IMG/VR virus record: IMGVR_UViG_3300017917_001406 | Location: 1 to 26,363 of that record | Reading direction: 5' to 3' (one strand) | DNA: 26,363 nt | DNA from: a virus | Shown: positions 14,304 to 25,922 of the stretch, one piece after another | Position numbering within the stretch: position 1 is the first letter of the stretch | Layout of the letters: every line of letters begins with the position of its first letter | Translations under genes and position numbers: made by a program | Notes under the pieces: generated by a model | Seen by the model: only the letters and a program-made list of their open reading frames with translations | What the model was told of the DNA's origin: nothing | Database searches by the model: none

Positions 14304-14858
14304 TTGACAAACAATAAAATGCTGGTAGGGGTAATTGGTAGTGCATTCGTTTTAGTATCAATTTTAGGTGCTATACCGTCTCATGCTACTAATAATAATT
14401 TATCTAAACAGACTGCGGTCTCTATTGCCACCCCAAAGGTGGCTTTTCTGCTATCTAAGGATAAAAATAAAAAAATACTTACTAAGTATGAAAATGCGAC
14501 AAGTTTGACTGACAGCCAGTTGGTTGAATTACTTAAGGCGGTAGGGTTCAAAGGAAATGGTCTTAAAATGGCTTGGGCTATTGCTAAGGCTGAATCCAAT
14601 GGTCGTCCATTTGCTTTTAATGGAAACACCAAAACTGGAGATTCCTCATATGGTATCTTTCAGATTAATATGATCGGTACTTTAGGTCCAGATAGACGAG
14701 ATAAGTTAAATCTTGATTTAAATGCTGAATTATTTAGCCCAGTCAAAAATGCACAAGCTGTGTTTTACATGACTGATGGCGGTACTGACTGGAGCTCTTG
14801 GAGTTCTTATAAAACAGGTGCTGTTCATAAATGGTTAAAAAAATTTCCTAATAAATAA
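14304..14858 (+). CDS. Exported endolysin: lysozyme/SLT-like muralytic enzyme
   Basis: This encodes 184 residues. An N-terminal signal sequence (KML then VGVIGSAFVLVSILGA, probable cleavage after SHA near residue 28) implies Sec export. The C-terminal domain (about 72-184) looks like a lysozyme/lytic transglycosylase: AWAIAKAESNG with E97 as the probable catalytic acid, GDSSYGIFQINMIG (112-125), K-N-A-Q-A-V and W-S-S-W-S-S-Y near 163-169. It would cut peptidoglycan at the end of infection. The start is TTG 14304, set by AGGAGG 7 nt before it. It is the only plus-strand gene between 0 and 24 kb and has its own promoter and terminator, which suggests separate timing. A virion-associated muralytic role is the alternative. 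Confidence 0.85.
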   Translation: MTNNKMLVGVIGSAFVLVSILGAIPSHATNNNLSKQTAVSIATPKVAFLLSKDKNKKILTKYENATSLTDSQLVELLKAVGFKGNGLKMAWAIAKAESNGRPFAFNGNTKTGDSSYGIFQINMIGTLGPDRRDKLNLDLNAELFSPVKNAQAVFYMTDGGTDWSSWSSYKTGAVHKWLKKFPNK

Positions 14859-15428: not shown

Positions 15429-15672
15429 CTATTAATTCTATACCTTTAGGCTTTTTTATATCTGGCGCATCATAGTCTAAAATCATTTCGCCAGATCCGT
15501 CATCCACCCAATAAAGTTCATTAACAACATGTGGTGGACAAAAAGCAAAACCTTTTTCCTGATTAAAAAATACATAATCTCCAGGTTCTACTCTAACTGG
15601 TTTTCCTACAAGCCTGCATCCAAACCACTTTGTTCCAAACTGATCTATAAAAATTTTATTATCTTGATTCAT
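15409..15672 (-). CDS. Small unknown protein (87 aa)
   Basis: This encodes 87 residues, acidic at the C-terminus, with a central segment GDYVFFNQEKGFAFCPPHVV and two cysteines (C19, C45). I do not recognise the family. I chose ATG 15672 because it overlaps the upstream stop as ATGA, with AAGGA about 10 nt before it. A TTG 21 bp further upstream is possible but lies inside the neighbour. It sits in a four-gene unit with the two PDWYKK paralogues and the zinc-motif gene. Confidence 0.7.
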   Translation of the reverse strand: MNQDNKIFIDQFGTKWFGCRLVGKPVRVEPGDYVFFNQEKGFAFCPPHVVNELYWVDDGSGEMILDYDAPDIKKPKGIELIDEAFKE

Positions 15673-16370
15673 GTAAAATTTTTCCTTTTCCAATAGTTGT
15701 TTTTATAATATCCAAATGCATGATTTTTAATTTTATTTAATAATATGTTTCCATTTTTTTTAATATCATCATTTTTTATTAATTTCCAAGAATTATTTTT
15801 AAAAGGAATTATTTGTGCTATTGGCGTACCTGCTGGAATTATTCCAGTGAAGTCCTTGCTAATAAAAAAAGGAATACTTCCTGGATATAAAATAAAATCT
15901 TCATCTACAATTCCAGACATAGTAAAAAATGGCAAGTCAAACCTATTTAATGGATGAGTTACAAGAAAACTATAGCCTTTAGGAACTTTAATATAATGTT
16001 TTGTTTTCCATGTATAGTGATCTGGTCTACATCCAATTGGTATTGGTAACTCTTTGTTTGTATCTATTGCTCTCTTTTCTACATATGTTTGAGAATAATC
16101 ATTCCAAGTAATTATAGCTTGATCATCAGATTGTGATACTGCAATATCCACTGCCAGTGGAATAATATAACCAGTAGTAAAAGAATCTGAAAATGGTGAG
16201 CACATTTTAAAACTCATTGGAGCTGGTAAAGATATTGGATCTAAATTAGTATTTAAAAATCTTTTAGTTTTTTTATACCAATCTGGAATAAATTTTTTGC
16301 TTAATTCAATATCTGGATAATGATCTTCAGAAACTGCATATTCTATAATTTTATTTTTTTTTATAAACAT
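15669..16370 (-). CDS. PDWYKK-motif phage protein, copy A
   Basis: This encodes 233 residues. Conserved blocks are PDWYKKTKRF (29-38), KMCSPF-x-D-x-x-TTGYII (55-70), a central Pro/Trp-rich stretch, KGYSFLVTHPLNR (131-143), SGIVDEDF (152-159) and IPAGTPIAQIIPF (178-190). The next gene upstream encodes a paralogue with the same blocks in the same order. The G-T-P-I-A-Q motif recalls the end of dUTPase-like β-barrels, but no dUTPase active site is visible, so I do not assign that function. I believe this is a phage-associated family of unknown function (perhaps the one named DUF6065, unsure). The start ATG overlaps the upstream stop by one base (TAATG). Confidence 0.75.
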   Translation of the reverse strand: MFIKKNKIIEYAVSEDHYPDIELSKKFIPDWYKKTKRFLNTNLDPISLPAPMSFKMCSPFSDSFTTGYIIPLAVDIAVSQSDDQAIITWNDYSQTYVEKRAIDTNKELPIPIGCRPDHYTWKTKHYIKVPKGYSFLVTHPLNRFDLPFFTMSGIVDEDFILYPGSIPFFISKDFTGIIPAGTPIAQIIPFKNNSWKLIKNDDIKKNGNILLNKIKNHAFGYYKNNYWKRKNFT

Positions 16371-17071
16371 TATTTATATTCTTTTCTATTCCAAAATATA
16401 TTTTTATATCTATCAAAAAATCTACTATTTAATTTTTTATTTATAGATGTTATTTTTTGTAAATCATTGTCACTGCCAATAGAATGTTTCCATATATCTC
16501 TTTTTATAGGTATGATCTGTGCTATGGGAGTACCTGCTGGAATTACACCTTCAAAATTAACATCTTTCAAAACAAAAGGAAAATTTACTGGTGAAAAATA
16601 ATTATCAGTATCAACTACACCCTCTAAAATTGTAAAATATTGATTTGTAGAATGAACTGGATTAATAAACAGTGTTGAATATCCAGATGGAGTTTTTATT
16701 CCCCAAGGATTAATCCATTTAGGAAATGGATGCTGGTTCATACTTGGATGATATGGTGCTTGAGTTGTACTATGAAACTCTATTGGATTTAAAGATAAAT
16801 CACTTGGTCTATACAAATGATTACCTATAGGATCTTTTGATACCAATACATCACAATATGTTGAAATTATATACCCTGAAGTTAATGCATCAAAAACTGG
16901 AATACATTTTTTAATTGTAGCGGTTGTGCTAAACTCTAATGTAACTTCTTTTTTTCCACCAATATATGAGTTTGTTTTTTTATACCAATCTGGTAAAAAT
17001 ACAGAAGATGGTTTTGGATAAAAAGAATCGGATATGTCAATAGTCTTAGTAAATACTATACTCTTTGACAT
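16370..17071 (-). CDS. PDWYKK-motif phage protein, copy B
   Basis: This encodes 233 residues and is a paralogue of the next gene: PDWYKKTNSY (27-36), KKCIPVFDALTSGYII (54-69), NPWGIKTPSGYSTLFINPVH (121-140), GVVDTDNYF (151-159) and IPAGTPIAQIIPIK (177-190), followed by an aromatic basic tail like that of copy A (FWNRKEYK vs YWKRKNFT). The two copies have diverged strongly outside these blocks, which argues for an old duplication with different partners or ligands. ATG 17071 is chosen, though TTG 17077 with GGGAG 7 nt upstream is nearly as good. Confidence 0.75.
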   Translation of the reverse strand: MSKSIVFTKTIDISDSFYPKPSSVFLPDWYKKTNSYIGGKKEVTLEFSTTATIKKCIPVFDALTSGYIISTYCDVLVSKDPIGNHLYRPSDLSLNPIEFHSTTQAPYHPSMNQHPFPKWINPWGIKTPSGYSTLFINPVHSTNQYFTILEGVVDTDNYFSPVNFPFVLKDVNFEGVIPAGTPIAQIIPIKRDIWKHSIGSDNDLQKITSINKKLNSRFFDRYKNIFWNRKEYK

Positions 17072-17103
17072 ACCCAATTCCCAACTCCCACTTAGTAAAG
17101 ATA

Positions 17104-20249: not shown

Positions 20250-20975
20250 TTATGAGACTGCTATGTGTATTGATTTTACAATCATAGATGCATCATGGTC
20301 GGTTCTTATTTGTGGAATACCGCCAGCTATCTGCATCTCTTTGTCTTCTAAAAATAATGTATGCTGCATTGATAGATCATAGTCAAATTGATATTTTAAA
20401 TTTCCTAGATATGTAGTGGGAGATGTATCTATATTTTTACAAAGAGTTCTAAACCAAACTTCTGTATTATTTGAAAATGTCGACAATTCTATATTATAAC
20501 GTATTGTTATAATTGATCCAATATTTAATGTTTTAAAATTAATTCTTTTGGTTTCTGGATTCCAAAGACCCACAGACTCTTTAGGCAAAAATTTTTCATT
20601 TGTATTTTTGCCCAAAGAATCAACAAAAAAATTAATCCATCCATCTTCACCTTTATTTGCTCCAAGTCTAAAACTTTTATTATTTAAATTATCGTAAAGT
20701 GCCCAACCAATATTTTGTTCTGAAGGTGAAAGAATACTTTTTCCATCTTTGCCATCTTTACCATCTTTGCCAGGATCGCCTTTATCACCTTTAGGACCTT
20801 GTTCTCCTTGTGGTCCTGTATCGCCCTTTTGCCCCCTAGGACCTTGTTCTCCCTGTGGTCCTGGCACAGCAATATACATCTGTGGATCTAAAATTAAGGG
20901 TTGCTCAGGCTCTATATTGTCCGAATATTTTTTTCTTTTGTTAGCGGCAGGTGGAAAGTCCATACTTTTTGCCAT
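20250..20975 (-). CDS. Collagen-like fibre protein A
   Basis: This encodes 241 residues. Residues 1-36 are a polar head with a basic NKRKK patch. Residues 39-80 hold 14 uninterrupted G-x-y triplets, the last four as GKD/GKD/GKD/GKS, predicted to form a collagen triple helix. Residues 81-241 form a β-rich globular domain (GWALYDNLNNKSFRLGANKG, VWFRTLCKN, LKYQFDYDLSMQHTLFLEDKE), probably a trimeric jelly-roll head. Such proteins form thin fibres on phage virions. GGGAAG lies before the ATG, just after the stop of a 28-codon ORF. Confidence 0.82.
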   Translation of the reverse strand: MAKSMDFPPAANKRKKYSDNIEPEQPLILDPQMYIAVPGPQGEQGPRGQKGDTGPQGEQGPKGDKGDPGKDGKDGKDGKSILSPSEQNIGWALYDNLNNKSFRLGANKGEDGWINFFVDSLGKNTNEKFLPKESVGLWNPETKRINFKTLNIGSIITIRYNIELSTFSNNTEVWFRTLCKNIDTSPTTYLGNLKYQFDYDLSMQHTLFLEDKEMQIAGGIPQIRTDHDASMIVKSIHIAVS

Positions 20976-22015: not shown

Positions 22016-22660
22016 TTAGCCAACTTGATTTACCGTCAAAATTACAGACGGTATTGATGGATGCCTATTAGCACCAGATCCAGTTCCTGCTTCTGCTTCT
22101 AATTTAATATTAGCATTATCAGTAGACCACATTAATTGATAATAATCATTTGTAGCAGCATTTACAAATATATTCCATGCTGCAACTACATAAGGACTAT
22201 TTGTATTAACAATTACTTTTGTGTTTGTATCTTCTATTGCTGTACCATTTTTAGCAAGCCAAATGTTTACAGTTTGTCCAGATCCACCGCCACCAGTATT
22301 ATGAAATTGTGCAGAAAAAGCAATATTATATTTACCAGCATTTATCATTTTAATTTGTGAACTCGATACAAGTTGAACTGCTGTTTGCCAATCTGTATTA
22401 TTAAAAGTCATTGCCTGAATTGATCCATTTGTACCAGTTTGATCTGCTGTACTAAAATATGATGCAGATGCACCATATCCAGTTACTGCTCCTGGATCTC
22501 CCTTTTCACCTTGTGGTCCAGTTGCTCCAGTGTCGCCTTTAACTCCTTGAGGACCTTGGTCACCTGTATCTCCTTTAGGTCCTTGTTCGCCTTGTATTCC
22601 TTGTGGTCCTTGTGGTCCAGGAATTCCACCACCGTCACCTGGATGTGTAAAACGTGCCAT
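22016..22660 (-). CDS. Collagen-like fibre protein B with C1q/TNF-like head
   Basis: This encodes 214 residues. A short head ([14 protein letters not shown]) is followed by about 14 G-x-y triplets (residues 15-57, for example [19 protein letters not shown]). Residues about 60-214 form a β jelly-roll domain ([77 protein letters not shown]), typical of C1q-like heads on bacterial and phage collagen fibres. It is probably a trimeric surface adhesin. It differs from fibre A in head and globular domain, so the two are not simple duplicates. It starts 1 bp after the upstream stop (TAATATG), so translation is probably coupled. Confidence 0.84.
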
Positions 22661-22661
22661 A

Positions 22662-22943
22662 TTAGTTACCGCTTTCTAAGTTAGTCTTTATAACTGCAAT
22701 TTCAGATTCGTTTGTATCCGAAATAGCATATAAATCATCCCTTCCAGGTAACTCAAATGAAATTGCATGATTAGGACTTATGCGATATCCAAAGTTGGAC
22801 GCACTAACTCCTTCGCCGCCAATATAAACATAAGCGGAAGAATCAATATTTTGAATGGTAATATCCATTCCTGAATGTGTTCCGATAGGTGTCAATGCAA
22901 TAGCTGCGGAATCGGATAAAACAATTTTAGCGTGTTGGGTCAT
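22662..22943 (-). CDS. Small conserved-type virion protein (93 aa)
   Basis: This encodes 93 residues: [19 protein letters not shown], then [23 protein letters not shown] and a C-terminal [12 protein letters not shown]. This strand pattern is common for small proteins next to collagen-like fibres in actinobacterial phages, probably an adaptor or decoration domain. The exact role is unknown. TGTTATAAT ends exactly 6 nt before the ATG with no ribosome-binding site, so a leaderless message for this gene and the coupled collagen gene is predicted. Confidence 0.75.
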
Positions 22944-22958: not shown

Positions 22959-23924
22959 CTAAAATATATTGTTTCCAGTAATTAAATCTATATTTGCATA
23001 TTTTTGATATATTTCTACTTCTACTGGATTTTTCATCAAATATAACAAAAAGTTATCTTTTATAGTTTGATCTACATCAATTTTAATATTTTCCTTTTGT
23101 AAAACATCTATAAAATTTTCTCTTTTGCCAATATCATCTGTTATATGTTGGCTATATAAATGATATATATAACATTCAAATCCAGGATATATTAGTGTAA
23201 ATCCATTATTAACTAGGTTTATTGAATGAATTATTTCTTCTTCCCAAAATAGAATGTTTGATTGATCATCCATAAAACTATAGATATTACCTTTTCCAAA
23301 AATAAAGTGTGCACTTATTTTATCTATTTTGCAAAATCCATTTTTTTCTATTTCATCATATATATTGATTTCTTCTTCATATAAAAATTGTTTTGGAGTA
23401 TTTTTCAAATATACATGTTGCCACATTGGAATAGTATCATTTAATACTCTAAATTTTTTTGGAATCCATTCTGTATATCCCAAAGAATTATCATATATAT
23501 TTATACTGTTTTGATTTAAATTATATTCATAACCATATGAACCTGCGTATGCAGTTAAAACTATCTTTTCTCCAATATGAGAAGATATATTTTCAAAACG
23601 ATTAATTAAAAATTTATCCCAATCTTTTTTAAAATATGAATGTGCATCAATTTGTAAGAAAAAGTCTTCTTTTTTATACATAGAAGCAGCAAGCCGTCTG
23701 TGAGAACCAATTCCAAAATCTTCTTTTAGAGTACTATATGTATGTTGAATATTTGGTATATTTTTTATAATACTTTTATAAAAATCATAATTAGATATAA
23801 AAGCAACGCCTATATTTATGTCATTTTCGCCTGACGCTTGAGCAAGGCACGAATTTATAGTTCGTTCAAGCTCAGTATCAACGCCAAGACATGATATTGA
23901 AACATATATAGATTTTTTACCCAC
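22959..23924 (-). CDS. GT60-like (GlcNAc-type) glycosyltransferase
   Basis: This encodes 321 residues from GTG 23924. The N-terminus IYVSISCLGVD-x-E-L-E-R-T-I-N-S-C-L-A-Q-A (6-30) is the opening strand and helix of the GlcNAc family. GIGSHRRLAASMY (71-83) and EDFFLQIDAHSYFKKDWD (86-103) contain the metal/nucleotide-binding D93-A-H motif in its usual setting. FWEEEI ... NNGFTLIYPGFECYIYHLY is the C-terminal acceptor block. Eukaryotic members transfer GlcNAc to hydroxyproline or mucin-type sites. Here the target may be a virion fibre such as the nearby collagen-like proteins, or host wall polymers. The start is GTG because TATAAT (23935-23930) ends 5 nt before it. A TTG at 23930 overlaps the box. 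Confidence 0.8.
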   Translation of the reverse strand: MGKKSIYVSISCLGVDTELERTINSCLAQASGENDINIGVAFISNYDFYKSIIKNIPNIQHTYSTLKEDFGIGSHRRLAASMYKKEDFFLQIDAHSYFKKDWDKFLINRFENISSHIGEKIVLTAYAGSYGYEYNLNQNSINIYDNSLGYTEWIPKKFRVLNDTIPMWQHVYLKNTPKQFLYEEEINIYDEIEKNGFCKIDKISAHFIFGKGNIYSFMDDQSNILFWEEEIIHSINLVNNGFTLIYPGFECYIYHLYSQHITDDIGKRENFIDVLQKENIKIDVDQTIKDNFLLYLMKNPVEVEIYQKYANIDLITGNNIF

Positions 23925-23929
23925 AATCA

Positions 23930-24056
23930 ATTATATACCATTAAATCTCGGGCGCAAAATAGAGTTATCAAACCACCCGATAGACAAACTATGGATAAAA
24001 ATATCCAACATGTCTGGTATTGGATTAATAGCTCTTAATAGGCTATAATAGTTTAT
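23930..24056. promoter_or_regulatory. Divergent promoter region between the glycosyltransferase and the plus-strand accessory operon
   Basis: Leftwards, TATAAT (23935-23930) with TTGCGC (23957-23952) 16 bp upstream serves the glycosyltransferase. Rightwards, TTGGAT (24020-24025), an 18-bp spacer and TATAAT (24044-24049), 7 nt before ATG 24057, serve the accessory genes as a leaderless message. A small hairpin GGATA-AAAA-TATCC (23993-24006) lies between. The GC-rich spot CTCGGGCGC (23947-23955) stands out but has no clear partner. Confidence 0.6.
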
Positions 24057-24257
24057 ATGTCTGATGATGTAAAACCATGGGATTTATTAAACCCAAATGC
24101 ACCTAGATCTGAAGAAGAATTAGCAAAATATCGTTTTGATATTTGTAGTTCTTGTGAGTGGTTTAGAAAAAGCTCTCAAACATGTAAAAAATGTGGATGT
24201 TTTATGAAATTAAAAACAACTTTAAAAAATGCTAAATGTCCAGTAGGTAAATGGTAA
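24057..24257 (+). CDS. Small six-cysteine zinc-binding protein (DUF6171-like)
   Basis: This encodes 66 residues: C30-x2-C33 (CSSC), C43-x2-C46-x-C48 (CKKCGC) and C61 in the terminal CPVGKW, with F-M-K-L-K-T between. This cysteine pattern and the GKW ending are typical of a small zinc-ribbon family widespread in phages and their hosts, of unknown function. It may mediate protein-protein contacts or aid host takeover. The start is set by TATAAT 7 nt upstream (leaderless). Confidence 0.8.
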   Translation: MSDDVKPWDLLNPNAPRSEEELAKYRFDICSSCEWFRKSSQTCKKCGCFMKLKTTLKNAKCPVGKW

Positions 24258-24258
24258 T

Positions 24259-25020
24259 ATGAAAAAAAATGAAATAAATATATATTGGACACCAACTACC
24301 AATACTCTTTTTCCTACTGACTCACATATAAAAGATAGTTCTTTTTTATATCCTAAACCAGAAAGTTTATTAAAATTTATGGCTAAAGATAAAATTAGGG
24401 GTGAAAAGAAAATGTCAATTTTTAATTGTCCAGCGGTAACAAATAAAGCAAAACAAACTATAGTATTTACAAGCCCTATGTCAATGGAATTTTATTATCA
24501 GAATAATGGTACAAATATAGATGTTGAGTATAAAAGCAAAACCTTTATAGATGTTTCTTTAGCAAGAGATCCAGAAATGAAATATGGTGCTTTTTTGTTA
24601 TTACATATGGGATGGTTGTTTTTTGCTGAAGAACCAGTTGAAGCTTTTTTTACCCCGCCATATTTTCATGAACCAAAATATACAAAATATGGATCTGTAA
24701 TACCTGGACAGTTTGATATAGGTCAATGGTTTAGACCATATCAAGCTGAAGTATTAATGTGGAAGAATGAGGGATCTTTTATTTTAGAAGAAGGTGAGCC
24801 ATTGTTTTATATTGAATTTAAAACTGATAAAAAGATTAATCTAAAAAGATTTAACCATACCCCCGAAGTACAAAAATATAGTCAAGCTTGTATAGATAGC
24901 ACTCCAATGTTTGGATTTGGTCAAACAATGTTGGCTAGGTATAATAGATTTAGAAATATTGGAATGAGAGAAAAAGTACTAACAGCTATTAAAAACAATT
25001 TAATAGATGATAATCAATAG
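24259..25020 (+). CDS. Phage protein of unknown function, possible distant PDWYKK-family member
   Basis: This encodes 253 residues. Blocks visible are PAVTNKAKQTIVFTSPMSMEF (54-75), GAFLLLHMGWLFFAEEPVEAFFTPPYF (about 112-138), GQFDIGQWFRPYQAEVLMW (151-169) and EEGEPLFYIEF (178-188). The order 'strand with S-P, L-x-x-H-M/hydrophobic strand, F-F-T, G-x-x, F-x-x-x-x-x-x-EGEPLF' parallels the two PDWYKK proteins (THP, FFTMSG, GSIPF, IPAGTPIAQ), suggesting distant homology, but no PDWYKK motif is present. It starts 1 bp after the previous stop, so it is probably coupled. Function unknown. Confidence 0.7.
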   Translation: MKKNEINIYWTPTTNTLFPTDSHIKDSSFLYPKPESLLKFMAKDKIRGEKKMSIFNCPAVTNKAKQTIVFTSPMSMEFYYQNNGTNIDVEYKSKTFIDVSLARDPEMKYGAFLLLHMGWLFFAEEPVEAFFTPPYFHEPKYTKYGSVIPGQFDIGQWFRPYQAEVLMWKNEGSFILEEGEPLFYIEFKTDKKINLKRFNHTPEVQKYSQACIDSTPMFGFGQTMLARYNRFRNIGMREKVLTAIKNNLIDDNQ

Positions 25021-25448: not shown

Positions 25449-25922
25449 ATGGAACAATTAATTCAAATGATCAAGGAGCTTTTAGCCAGTACCGTGGCTT
25501 TAAAATATAAAGCTCAGGGATATCATTGGAATGTTGAAACAGATGATTTTCCACAATACCACGAATTTTTTGGCGAGATCTATGAAGATTATGATAGCGC
25601 TGTAGATCCTTTCGCCGAATGGATTCGTATGGTGGATATTAATTCATATGCTCCATTTAAACTATCTAGATTTGCACAATTATCATTTATTCCAGAAACA
25701 GAAGTCACTGCAGACCATGAAGCTATGGCATCGGATCTTAAAATGTCAAATGATTTAATGATCCCAAGGCTTATTGCTGCTGTAGATCTTGCTAATGCAC
25801 AAAAGCAATATGGATTAGCAAACTTCTTCGCAGATCGCCAAACCATGCATCAAAAATGGTCTTGGCAATTAGGAACATTAGTTCGATCTGATATGGAAGA
25901 AACTCCACAACAAGGCATGTAA
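25449..25922 (+). CDS. dps: Dps-type miniferritin with complete ferroxidase spacing
   Basis: This encodes 157 residues. H26 (YHWNV), H38 (YHEFF), D53 and E57 (VDPFAEWIR) have the same spacing (12, 15, 4) as E. coli Dps H51, H63, D78, E82, which line the inter-subunit iron-oxidising site. The acidic D67 equivalent is not obvious (G42). Dps dodecamers oxidise Fe(II) with peroxide and store iron, and many bind DNA. A phage copy could protect phage or host DNA from oxidative damage late in infection. No long basic N-terminal DNA-binding tail is present. The message is predicted leaderless (TATAAT ends 6 nt before ATG). The HAD phosphatase gene starts 1 bp after its stop. Confidence 0.88.
   Translation: MEQLIQMIKELLASTVALKYKAQGYHWNVETDDFPQYHEFFGEIYEDYDSAVDPFAEWIRMVDINSYAPFKLSRFAQLSFIPETEVTADHEAMASDLKMSNDLMIPRLIAAVDLANAQKQYGLANFFADRQTMHQKWSWQLGTLVRSDMEETPQQGM

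What the first reader, a model, noticed from the sequence alone, without database searches (positions are those of the whole stretch)
22959..23924. Phage-encoded GT60-like glycosyltransferase beside collagen-like fibres
The D-A-H motif and both conserved flanks fit the GlcNAc family, whose characterised members modify hydroxyproline or mucin-type sites. Its neighbours in the same orientation encode two collagen-like proteins. Glycosylated phage collagen would be unusual. Host surface modification to block superinfection is the alternative.
Basis: partly seen in the sequence, partly recalled or inferred. Interest (0 to 1): 0.6.

Follow-up and report, generated by a model that had tools for sequence, protein, structure and literature searches.

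The report
Phage peptide-glycosyltransferase-like enzyme, acceptor unknown
An environmental tailed phage, probably infecting a freshwater actinobacterium, carries a sugar-transferring enzyme built like the enzymes that put the first sugar on proteins in animals and amoebae; it probably decorates the phage's own tail proteins, but the collagen fibres beside it are not specially linked to it.

Summary
ORF 22959-23930(-) is a Pfam PF11397 'GlcNAc' (GT60-type) glycosyltransferase (E=3.8e-15). An AlphaFold model from 44 viral homologues (pLDDT 90, pTM 0.91) has a GT-A fold; its best solved matches are the catalytic domains of polypeptide GalNAc-transferases (Z 21, 266 residues). Two collagen-like genes lie downstream on the same strand.

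The collagen link is not specific. Across 49 GT clusters collagen genes are no nearer than chance (5 vs 4.1 expected, p=0.40). Two other partners are: a small Cys-rich DUF6171-like protein (24 vs 9.0, p<=5e-4; window 24057-24257, next to the GT) and 2OG-Fe(II) oxygenases (12 vs 5.6, p<=5e-4). Relatives show DUF6171-oxygenase-GT60 gene orders, and one has PF11397 fused to HPAT and O-FucT protein-glycosylation domains. The window fragment itself has no oxygenase.

Most likely reading: O-glycosylation of a phage tail or fibre protein, an accessory gene in a variable tail-side slot. Acceptor, sugar and anomericity are untested. Host-surface modification remains a serious rival; DNA glycosylation is unlikely.

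The parts
22959..23930 (-). PF11397 (GT60-type) GT-A glycosyltransferase, 323 aa (TTG 23930) or 321 aa (GTG 23924); candidate metal ligands D95, H97, H257 and E231/E232 in TTG numbering; no lectin domain; no hydrophobic stretch
   Evidence: Pfam 3.8e-15; model pLDDT 90.4, pTM 0.91; GalNAc-T catalytic domain Z 21; invariant residues; max 19-residue hydropathy 1.04
24057..24257 (+). Small Cys-rich DUF6171-like protein (phrog_13558), divergent neighbour of the GT and its most recurrent partner in other phages; function unknown, probably a zinc ribbon (inferred from the Cys pattern)
   Evidence: Pfam PF19668 5.4e-8; PHROG 13558 3.5e-17; within 4 genes of the GT in 24/49 clusters vs 9.0 expected; conserved Cys pattern
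22016..22660 (-). Collagen-like fibre protein: 16 Gly-X-Y repeats plus a C-terminal domain; a possible acceptor, not shown
   Evidence: Pfam Collagen 4.5e-7; tail-fibre PHROGs; repeat makeup
20250..20975 (-). Collagen-like fibre protein, 14 Gly-X-Y repeats; backbone gene of this phage lineage
   Evidence: Pfam Collagen 3.1e-8; at least 181 relatives in IMG/VR
22662..22943 (-). 93-aa ORF between the GT and the first collagen-like gene, unknown function
   Evidence: no Pfam hit; homologue in L014
15669..17077 (-). Two tandem DUF6065-like proteins (phrog_7084) in the region near the lysozyme-like gene where relatives carry DUF6171/oxygenase/GT60; they recur beside the GTs of L025, L026 and L027
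   Evidence: PHROG 2.4e-35 and 6.8e-58; DUF6065 only sub-threshold, 0.04-0.05; neighbourhoods
24259..25020 (+). phrog_17480 protein, weakly related to the same DUF6065-like superfamily; co-oriented with the DUF6171-like gene
   Evidence: PHROG 17480 6.2e-22, phrog_7084 0.003

Best explanation
The gene encodes an active, soluble, metal-dependent GT-A glycosyltransferase of the PF11397/GT60 type. It most likely transfers one sugar (HexNAc by analogy) from a UDP-sugar to Ser, Thr or a hydroxylated residue of a protein inside the infected cell, the acceptor most likely being a phage tail or fibre protein. It is an accessory gene in a variable slot at the edge of the tail module. In relatives the slot also holds DUF6171-like, 2OG-Fe(II) oxygenase and radical-SAM genes, so its role is probably to change the exposed surface of the virion (adsorption, protection or stability). 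Shown: ORF, family, predicted fold, conserved active-site residues, linkage. Inferred: activity, sugar, protein acceptor, virion target, benefit.
For: PF11397 above cut-off for the window, and matched by all 44 homologues. Model pLDDT 90.4; polypeptide GalNAc-Ts are best at Z 19-21 over 255-273 residues, the next family at Z 16.9. D95, H97, W104 and D105 are invariant in both sets; H257 is conserved wherever the column is covered. Their order, and the 25-residue E232-H257 spacing, match Glu334 and the Mn ligands Asp224/His226/His359 of GalNAc-T2 (residues from PMC4432651). PF11397 fused to HPAT and O-FucT domains in L098. Linkage to 2OG oxygenases and DUF6171; DUF6171 was not seen in the 80 bacterial loci. 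Tail-side slot. Known GT60 members act on peptides, including hydroxyproline of Skp1 (PMC6939170). No membrane segment.
Against: No acceptor, donor or activity data. A GT-A fold does not fix the acceptor: polysaccharide synthases also match (Z up to 16.9). No oxygenase in the window and no specific link to collagen genes. The same family sits beside carbamoyltransferase genes in a jumbo phage and in L096-type phages, which suggests other roles in some members. Neighbouring genes are suggestive, not proof, of a common pathway. The linkage statistics come from related phages and are not fully independent.
Confidence: 0.5

Rival explanations
1. The enzyme adds a sugar to a host cell-surface polymer (teichoic acid, capsule, glycolipid), altering phage receptors and blocking superinfection.
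For: This is the published default reading for glycosyltransferases in tail-side hypervariable regions of aquatic myophages (PMC7029224). GT-A polysaccharide enzymes are structural matches at Z 15-17. Epimerase genes are mildly enriched near the GT (7 vs 3.7, p=0.03). Bacterial homologues are widespread.
Against: The best fold matches are peptide glycosyltransferases by a clear margin. The recurring partners are 2OG oxygenases and DUF6171, not membrane flippases or lipid-linked enzymes; flippases were not searched for directly. No membrane segment. PF11397 is fused to protein-glycosylation domains in a relative.
Confidence: 0.27
2. It glycosylates hypermodified phage DNA, as TET-associated glycosyltransferases do.
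For: Phage glycosyltransferases commonly act on DNA. L098's PF11397 domain weakly matches TAGT (2e-4).
Against: The window protein gives no TAGT match at E<=1. No TET/JBP in the window. The L025 phage carries a separate TET and TAGT pair elsewhere in its record, so the PF11397 gene is probably not its DNA glycosyltransferase. The associated oxygenases are PF13640 type and match TET/JBP only below cut-off.
Confidence: 0.06
3. It modifies a host protein, for example to inactivate a host enzyme or defence protein during infection.
For: A peptide-glycosyltransferase fold is compatible. A PF11397 relative on a Phyllobacterium plasmid sits near secretion genes and a large calcium-binding protein.
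Against: The recurring tail-side position fits virion proteins better.
Confidence: 0.12
4. The reader's specific model, a sub-case of the best explanation: it glycosylates hydroxyproline or mucin-like sites in the two neighbouring collagen-like fibres.
For: Both collagen genes are nearby on the same strand. L026 has a collagen gene two genes from its GT in the same slot. Mimivirus modifies its own collagen (cited in PMC8968730).
Against: Collagen genes are not enriched near the GT (p=0.40) and are present without it. No oxygenase in the window or in L026's 80-kb record.
Confidence: 0.15

Closest known systems
CAZy GT60 / Pfam PF11397: Dictyostelium and Toxoplasma Gnt1 (Skp1), T. cruzi polypeptide alpha-GlcNAc-transferase
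   Same: Same Pfam family above cut-off; D-x-H motif; in related phages the gene sits beside a 2OG-Fe(II) oxygenase, as prolyl hydroxylase acts before Gnt1 in the Skp1 pathway
   Different: Viral, strongly diverged; acceptor and sugar unknown; no oxygenase in the window fragment
GT27 polypeptide GalNAc-transferases
   Same: Best solved structural match (Z 21, 266 residues); D-x-H and a later Glu and His in the same order as GalNAc-T2's Mn ligands and Glu334
   Different: About 12% identity; no lectin domain; no detectable sequence match to any PDB chain
Mycobacteriophage virion glycosylation (Freeman et al. 2023, as cited in PMC12619734)
   Same: Glycans on the phage's own particle (capsid and tail tube)
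   Different: The enzyme families there were not compared here; target not shown here
Mimivirus bifunctional collagen lysyl hydroxylase/glycosyltransferase (Luther 2011, cited in PMC8968730)
   Same: Viral enzyme for viral collagen; the cellular homologue LH3 appears among the Foldseek matches
   Different: Different family, eukaryotic host, hydroxylysine-linked, single fused protein
Metagenomic phage proteins named 'Glycosyltransferase, GlcNAc' (UniProt A0A6J7X0M8, A0A6J5R1Z4 and others)
   Same: Nearest viral predicted structures (E 4e-25 and 2e-20; the very best match, A0A6J5Q062 at 2e-30, is named only as a GT-A domain protein)
   Different: Only automatic names; no described gene cassette or function found here

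Membership tests
Pfam PF11397 GlcNAc | HMM score above the curated cut-off (21 bits) | tested here: met
   56.6 bits, E=3.8e-15; 44/44 homologues match at E<=0.001
CAZy GT60 | GT-A fold with D-x-H in place of DxD | tested here: met
   Model and fold matches; D and H invariant
CAZy GT60 | Sequence grouping with characterised GT60 enzymes by CAZy's own criteria | not tested
   No CAZy models or characterised GT60 sequences were compared; PF11397 stands in for them
CAZy GT60 | Transfer of alpha-GlcNAc to peptide (Ser/Thr or hydroxyproline) | not testable with these tools
   Needs enzyme assay or glycopeptide mass spectrometry
GT27 polypeptide GalNAc-transferase | C-terminal ricin-type lectin domain, found in most animal members | tested here: not met
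   All 323 residues fit the catalytic domain (GalNAc-T2 132-441); nothing left for a lectin domain
GT27 polypeptide GalNAc-transferase | Detectable sequence homology to GT27 members | tested here: not met
   Profile of 44 homologues finds no PDB chain, GalNAc-Ts included, at E<=10
TET-associated glycosyltransferase (TAGT, PF20691) | TAGT HMM match | tested here: not met
   No match at E<=1
Skp1-type hydroxylation-glycosylation pair | Prolyl-hydroxylase-type 2OG oxygenase gene in the same genome | tested here: inconclusive
   Absent from the 26-kb fragment; present near the GT in L027 and several backbone relatives; rest of this genome unknown

The most novel reading that the evidence does not exclude
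Many uncultivated aquatic phages carry a mobile cassette (DUF6171-like protein, 2OG-Fe(II) oxygenase and/or radical SAM enzyme, PF11397 glycosyltransferase) that hydroxylates and then glycosylates tail-fibre proteins: a phage counterpart of the amoebal Skp1 prolyl-hydroxylation and GlcNAc pathway.
Probability: 0.2. Interest if true: 0.75.

Novelty: new member of a known kind. Interest (0 to 1): 0.45.

Why it matters
Few phages are known to glycosylate their own particles. A widespread PF11397 family (549 of the 599 candidate stretches in one capped IMG/VR scan encode relatives) with the predicted fold of peptide glycosyltransferases, linked to oxygenases at a variable tail-side slot, would give a testable route to post-translational variation of receptor-binding structures in abundant freshwater phages. 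It also names an uncharacterised, recurrent partner gene, DUF6171.

Tried and rejected
Single-sequence AlphaFold was useless (pLDDT 35.5), so the alignment-based model was used. Direct tblastn of the GT against cultured phages found nothing; a plasmid homologue used as a bridge found three jumbo-phage records. The first IMG/VR scan with the single protein found no relative; the alignment scan found over 500. Sequence and profile searches of the PDB found no relative. Collagen-specific linkage was tested and rejected. DNA glycosylation was tested and judged unlikely. D/H conservation in A2 alone would be partly circular, because one retrieval pattern contained the motif; it was re-tested on homologues fetched through other genes. 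The literature search found one paper holding PF11397 (on a brown alga) and none holding DUF6065 or DUF6171; the library lacks many subscription papers, including Freeman 2023 and Pyle 2024.

Full report
What is there. The window is a 26,363-bp linear IMG/VR fragment with long tail-like proteins on the minus strand, a lysozyme-like gene (14304-14858 +) and a class II ribonucleotide reductase. It matches Pfam PF11397 (3.8e-15; cut-off 21 bits, score 56.6) and PHROG 24687 glycosyltransferase. Its GC content is 24.7% against 33.1% for the window, which is compatible with an acquired accessory gene. The collagen-like ORFs 22016-22660 and 20250-20975 are real. The immediate downstream neighbour is a 93-aa ORF; the immediate upstream neighbour, divergent, is the DUF6171-like gene 24057-24257.

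Fold and active site. A model from 44 viral homologues (alignment A2) reaches mean pLDDT 90.4 and pTM 0.91. Foldseek and VIA-align both place polypeptide GalNAc-transferases first (Z 19-21, rmsd 3.4-4.0, 255-273 residues); chondroitin polymerase follows at 16.9, and many other GT-A enzymes at 15-17. The whole protein fits the catalytic domain, so there is no lectin domain. D18, T24, Q93, D95, H97, W104, D105, F211, E231, E232, G243 and H257 are invariant in the 44. Because one retrieval pattern contained the D-x-H motif, I repeated the check on 17 PF11397-type proteins fetched through neighbouring backbone genes: D95, H97, W104, D105 and F211 are 17/17, and H257 is 16/16 where the column is covered. 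In GalNAc-T2 the Mn ligands are Asp224, His226 and His359, and Glu334 contacts the peptide (PMC4432651). The order D-x-H, E, H and the 25-residue E-to-H spacing are the same here, but no superposed coordinates were inspected, so this equivalence is inference.

Distribution. No cultured phage in INPHARED matches directly; Stenotrophomonas phages CM1 and RAS14 and Xanthomonas phage XacN1 match through a plasmid homologue. In bacteria 132 candidate stretches do so. UniProt already holds metagenomic phage proteins named 'Glycosyltransferase, GlcNAc'. In a tree of 49 viral proteins the window protein falls with L025, L026 and L027 (support 100/99), which have DUF6171-like and DUF6065-like neighbours and are at most 35% identical to it.

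Neighbourhood test. In 49 GT clusters (70% identity), I counted partner genes within four genes of the GT and compared them with random genes in the same loci. DUF6171-like: 24 against 9.0 expected, p<=5e-4; nearest copy always upstream of the GT, 23 of 25 on its strand. 2OG-Fe(II) oxygenase: 12 against 5.6, p<=5e-4; this may be an undercount, since the ORF caller missed the L027 copy seen. Epimerase: 7 against 3.7, p=0.03. DUF6065-like: p=0.18. Collagen: 5 against 4.1, p=0.40. In the window's own lineage (156 loci fetched with a tail-module protein and the collagen gene), 88 non-identical loci span the region upstream of the lysozyme-like gene. There GT co-occurs with oxygenase (7 of 11 loci with GT against 7 of 77 without, Fisher 1.3e-4) and with DUF6171 (8/11 against 15/77, 7e-4). 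These loci are related, so the p-values overstate independence; on the GT tree, however, DUF6171 linkage needs about 10 changes (at least 8 forced by supported branches), so it is not one inherited block. 188 of 194 oxygenase hits keep the HxD...H motif. The window itself has two DUF6065-like genes in the region near the lysozyme-like gene and its GT in a second slot, next to the divergent DUF6171 gene; L026 has its GT at the corresponding place. The window has no oxygenase, nor does L026's 80-kb record, so hydroxylation before glycosylation is not established for this subgroup.

Protein acceptor or not. Four lines point to a protein: fold ranking; the known activities of GT60 (Gnt1 of Toxoplasma, on hydroxyproline of Skp1, and the T. 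cruzi polypeptide enzyme; PMC6939170); a 923-aa protein in L098 that joins HPAT (hydroxyproline O-arabinosyltransferase family), O-FucT and PF11397 domains; and linkage to oxygenases. Against DNA as acceptor: no TAGT match, no TET/JBP in the window, and in L025 a separate TET and TAGT pair elsewhere in the record. Host-surface modification is the usual reading for such genes in aquatic myophages (PMC7029224) and cannot be excluded. Virion glycosylation as such is known in mycobacteriophages (Freeman 2023, cited in PMC12619734).

Host. The ribonucleotide reductase is 62% identical to that of Actinomycetia phage DSL-LC01 from Dishui Lake and to Mycobacterium phage Gaia; the lysozyme-like gene matches Streptomyces, Prochlorococcus and Rhodococcus phages. 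An actinobacterial host is likely but not shown.

Verdict. The collagen connection is a neighbourhood coincidence as far as the data go. The more interesting pattern is the recurrent DUF6171 / oxygenase / PF11397 grouping. The single gene is a new member of a known family; the grouping deserves follow-up.

Noticed in passing
L098:6096-8864 (also L101, L102; similar large ORFs in L095, L096): A phage protein of 923 aa joins HPAT, O-FucT and PF11397 domains, followed by a second PF11397 gene: a multi-domain protein-glycosylation enzyme in a phage.
   Followed up: partly
window 15669-17077 and 24259-25020: Three apparently related DUF6065-like proteins of unknown function (phrog_7084, phrog_17480); homologues occur in haloarchaeal tailed viruses HF1/HF2 and others, and are interleaved with 2OG oxygenases in relatives.
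   Followed up: partly
L238, L266, L280 and L237 records: Arrays of five to ten 2OG-Fe(II) oxygenase genes with DUF6065-like genes among them in single phage records.
   Followed up: partly
L025 record (58,047 bp), about 7.8-9.0 kb: Adjacent TET/JBP and TAGT genes, probably a DNA hypermodification pair, in the same phage as a PF11397 gene.
   Followed up: no
L021:6016-7239: A PF11397-type gene on an Azospirillum plasmid lies directly upstream of a contractile tail-like gene cluster (DUF4255, tail sheath, tail proteins).
   Followed up: no
L022:5995-6936: A PF11397-type gene on a Phyllobacterium plasmid lies beside a large calcium-binding protein and type I secretion genes.
   Followed up: no
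L040, L044, L045, L049, L082, L250: A radical SAM/SPASM gene sits between, or next to, the DUF6171-like and PF11397 genes.
   Followed up: partly
window 25449-25922: The ORF looks like a Dps/ferritin-type protein by eye; not searched.
   Followed up: no
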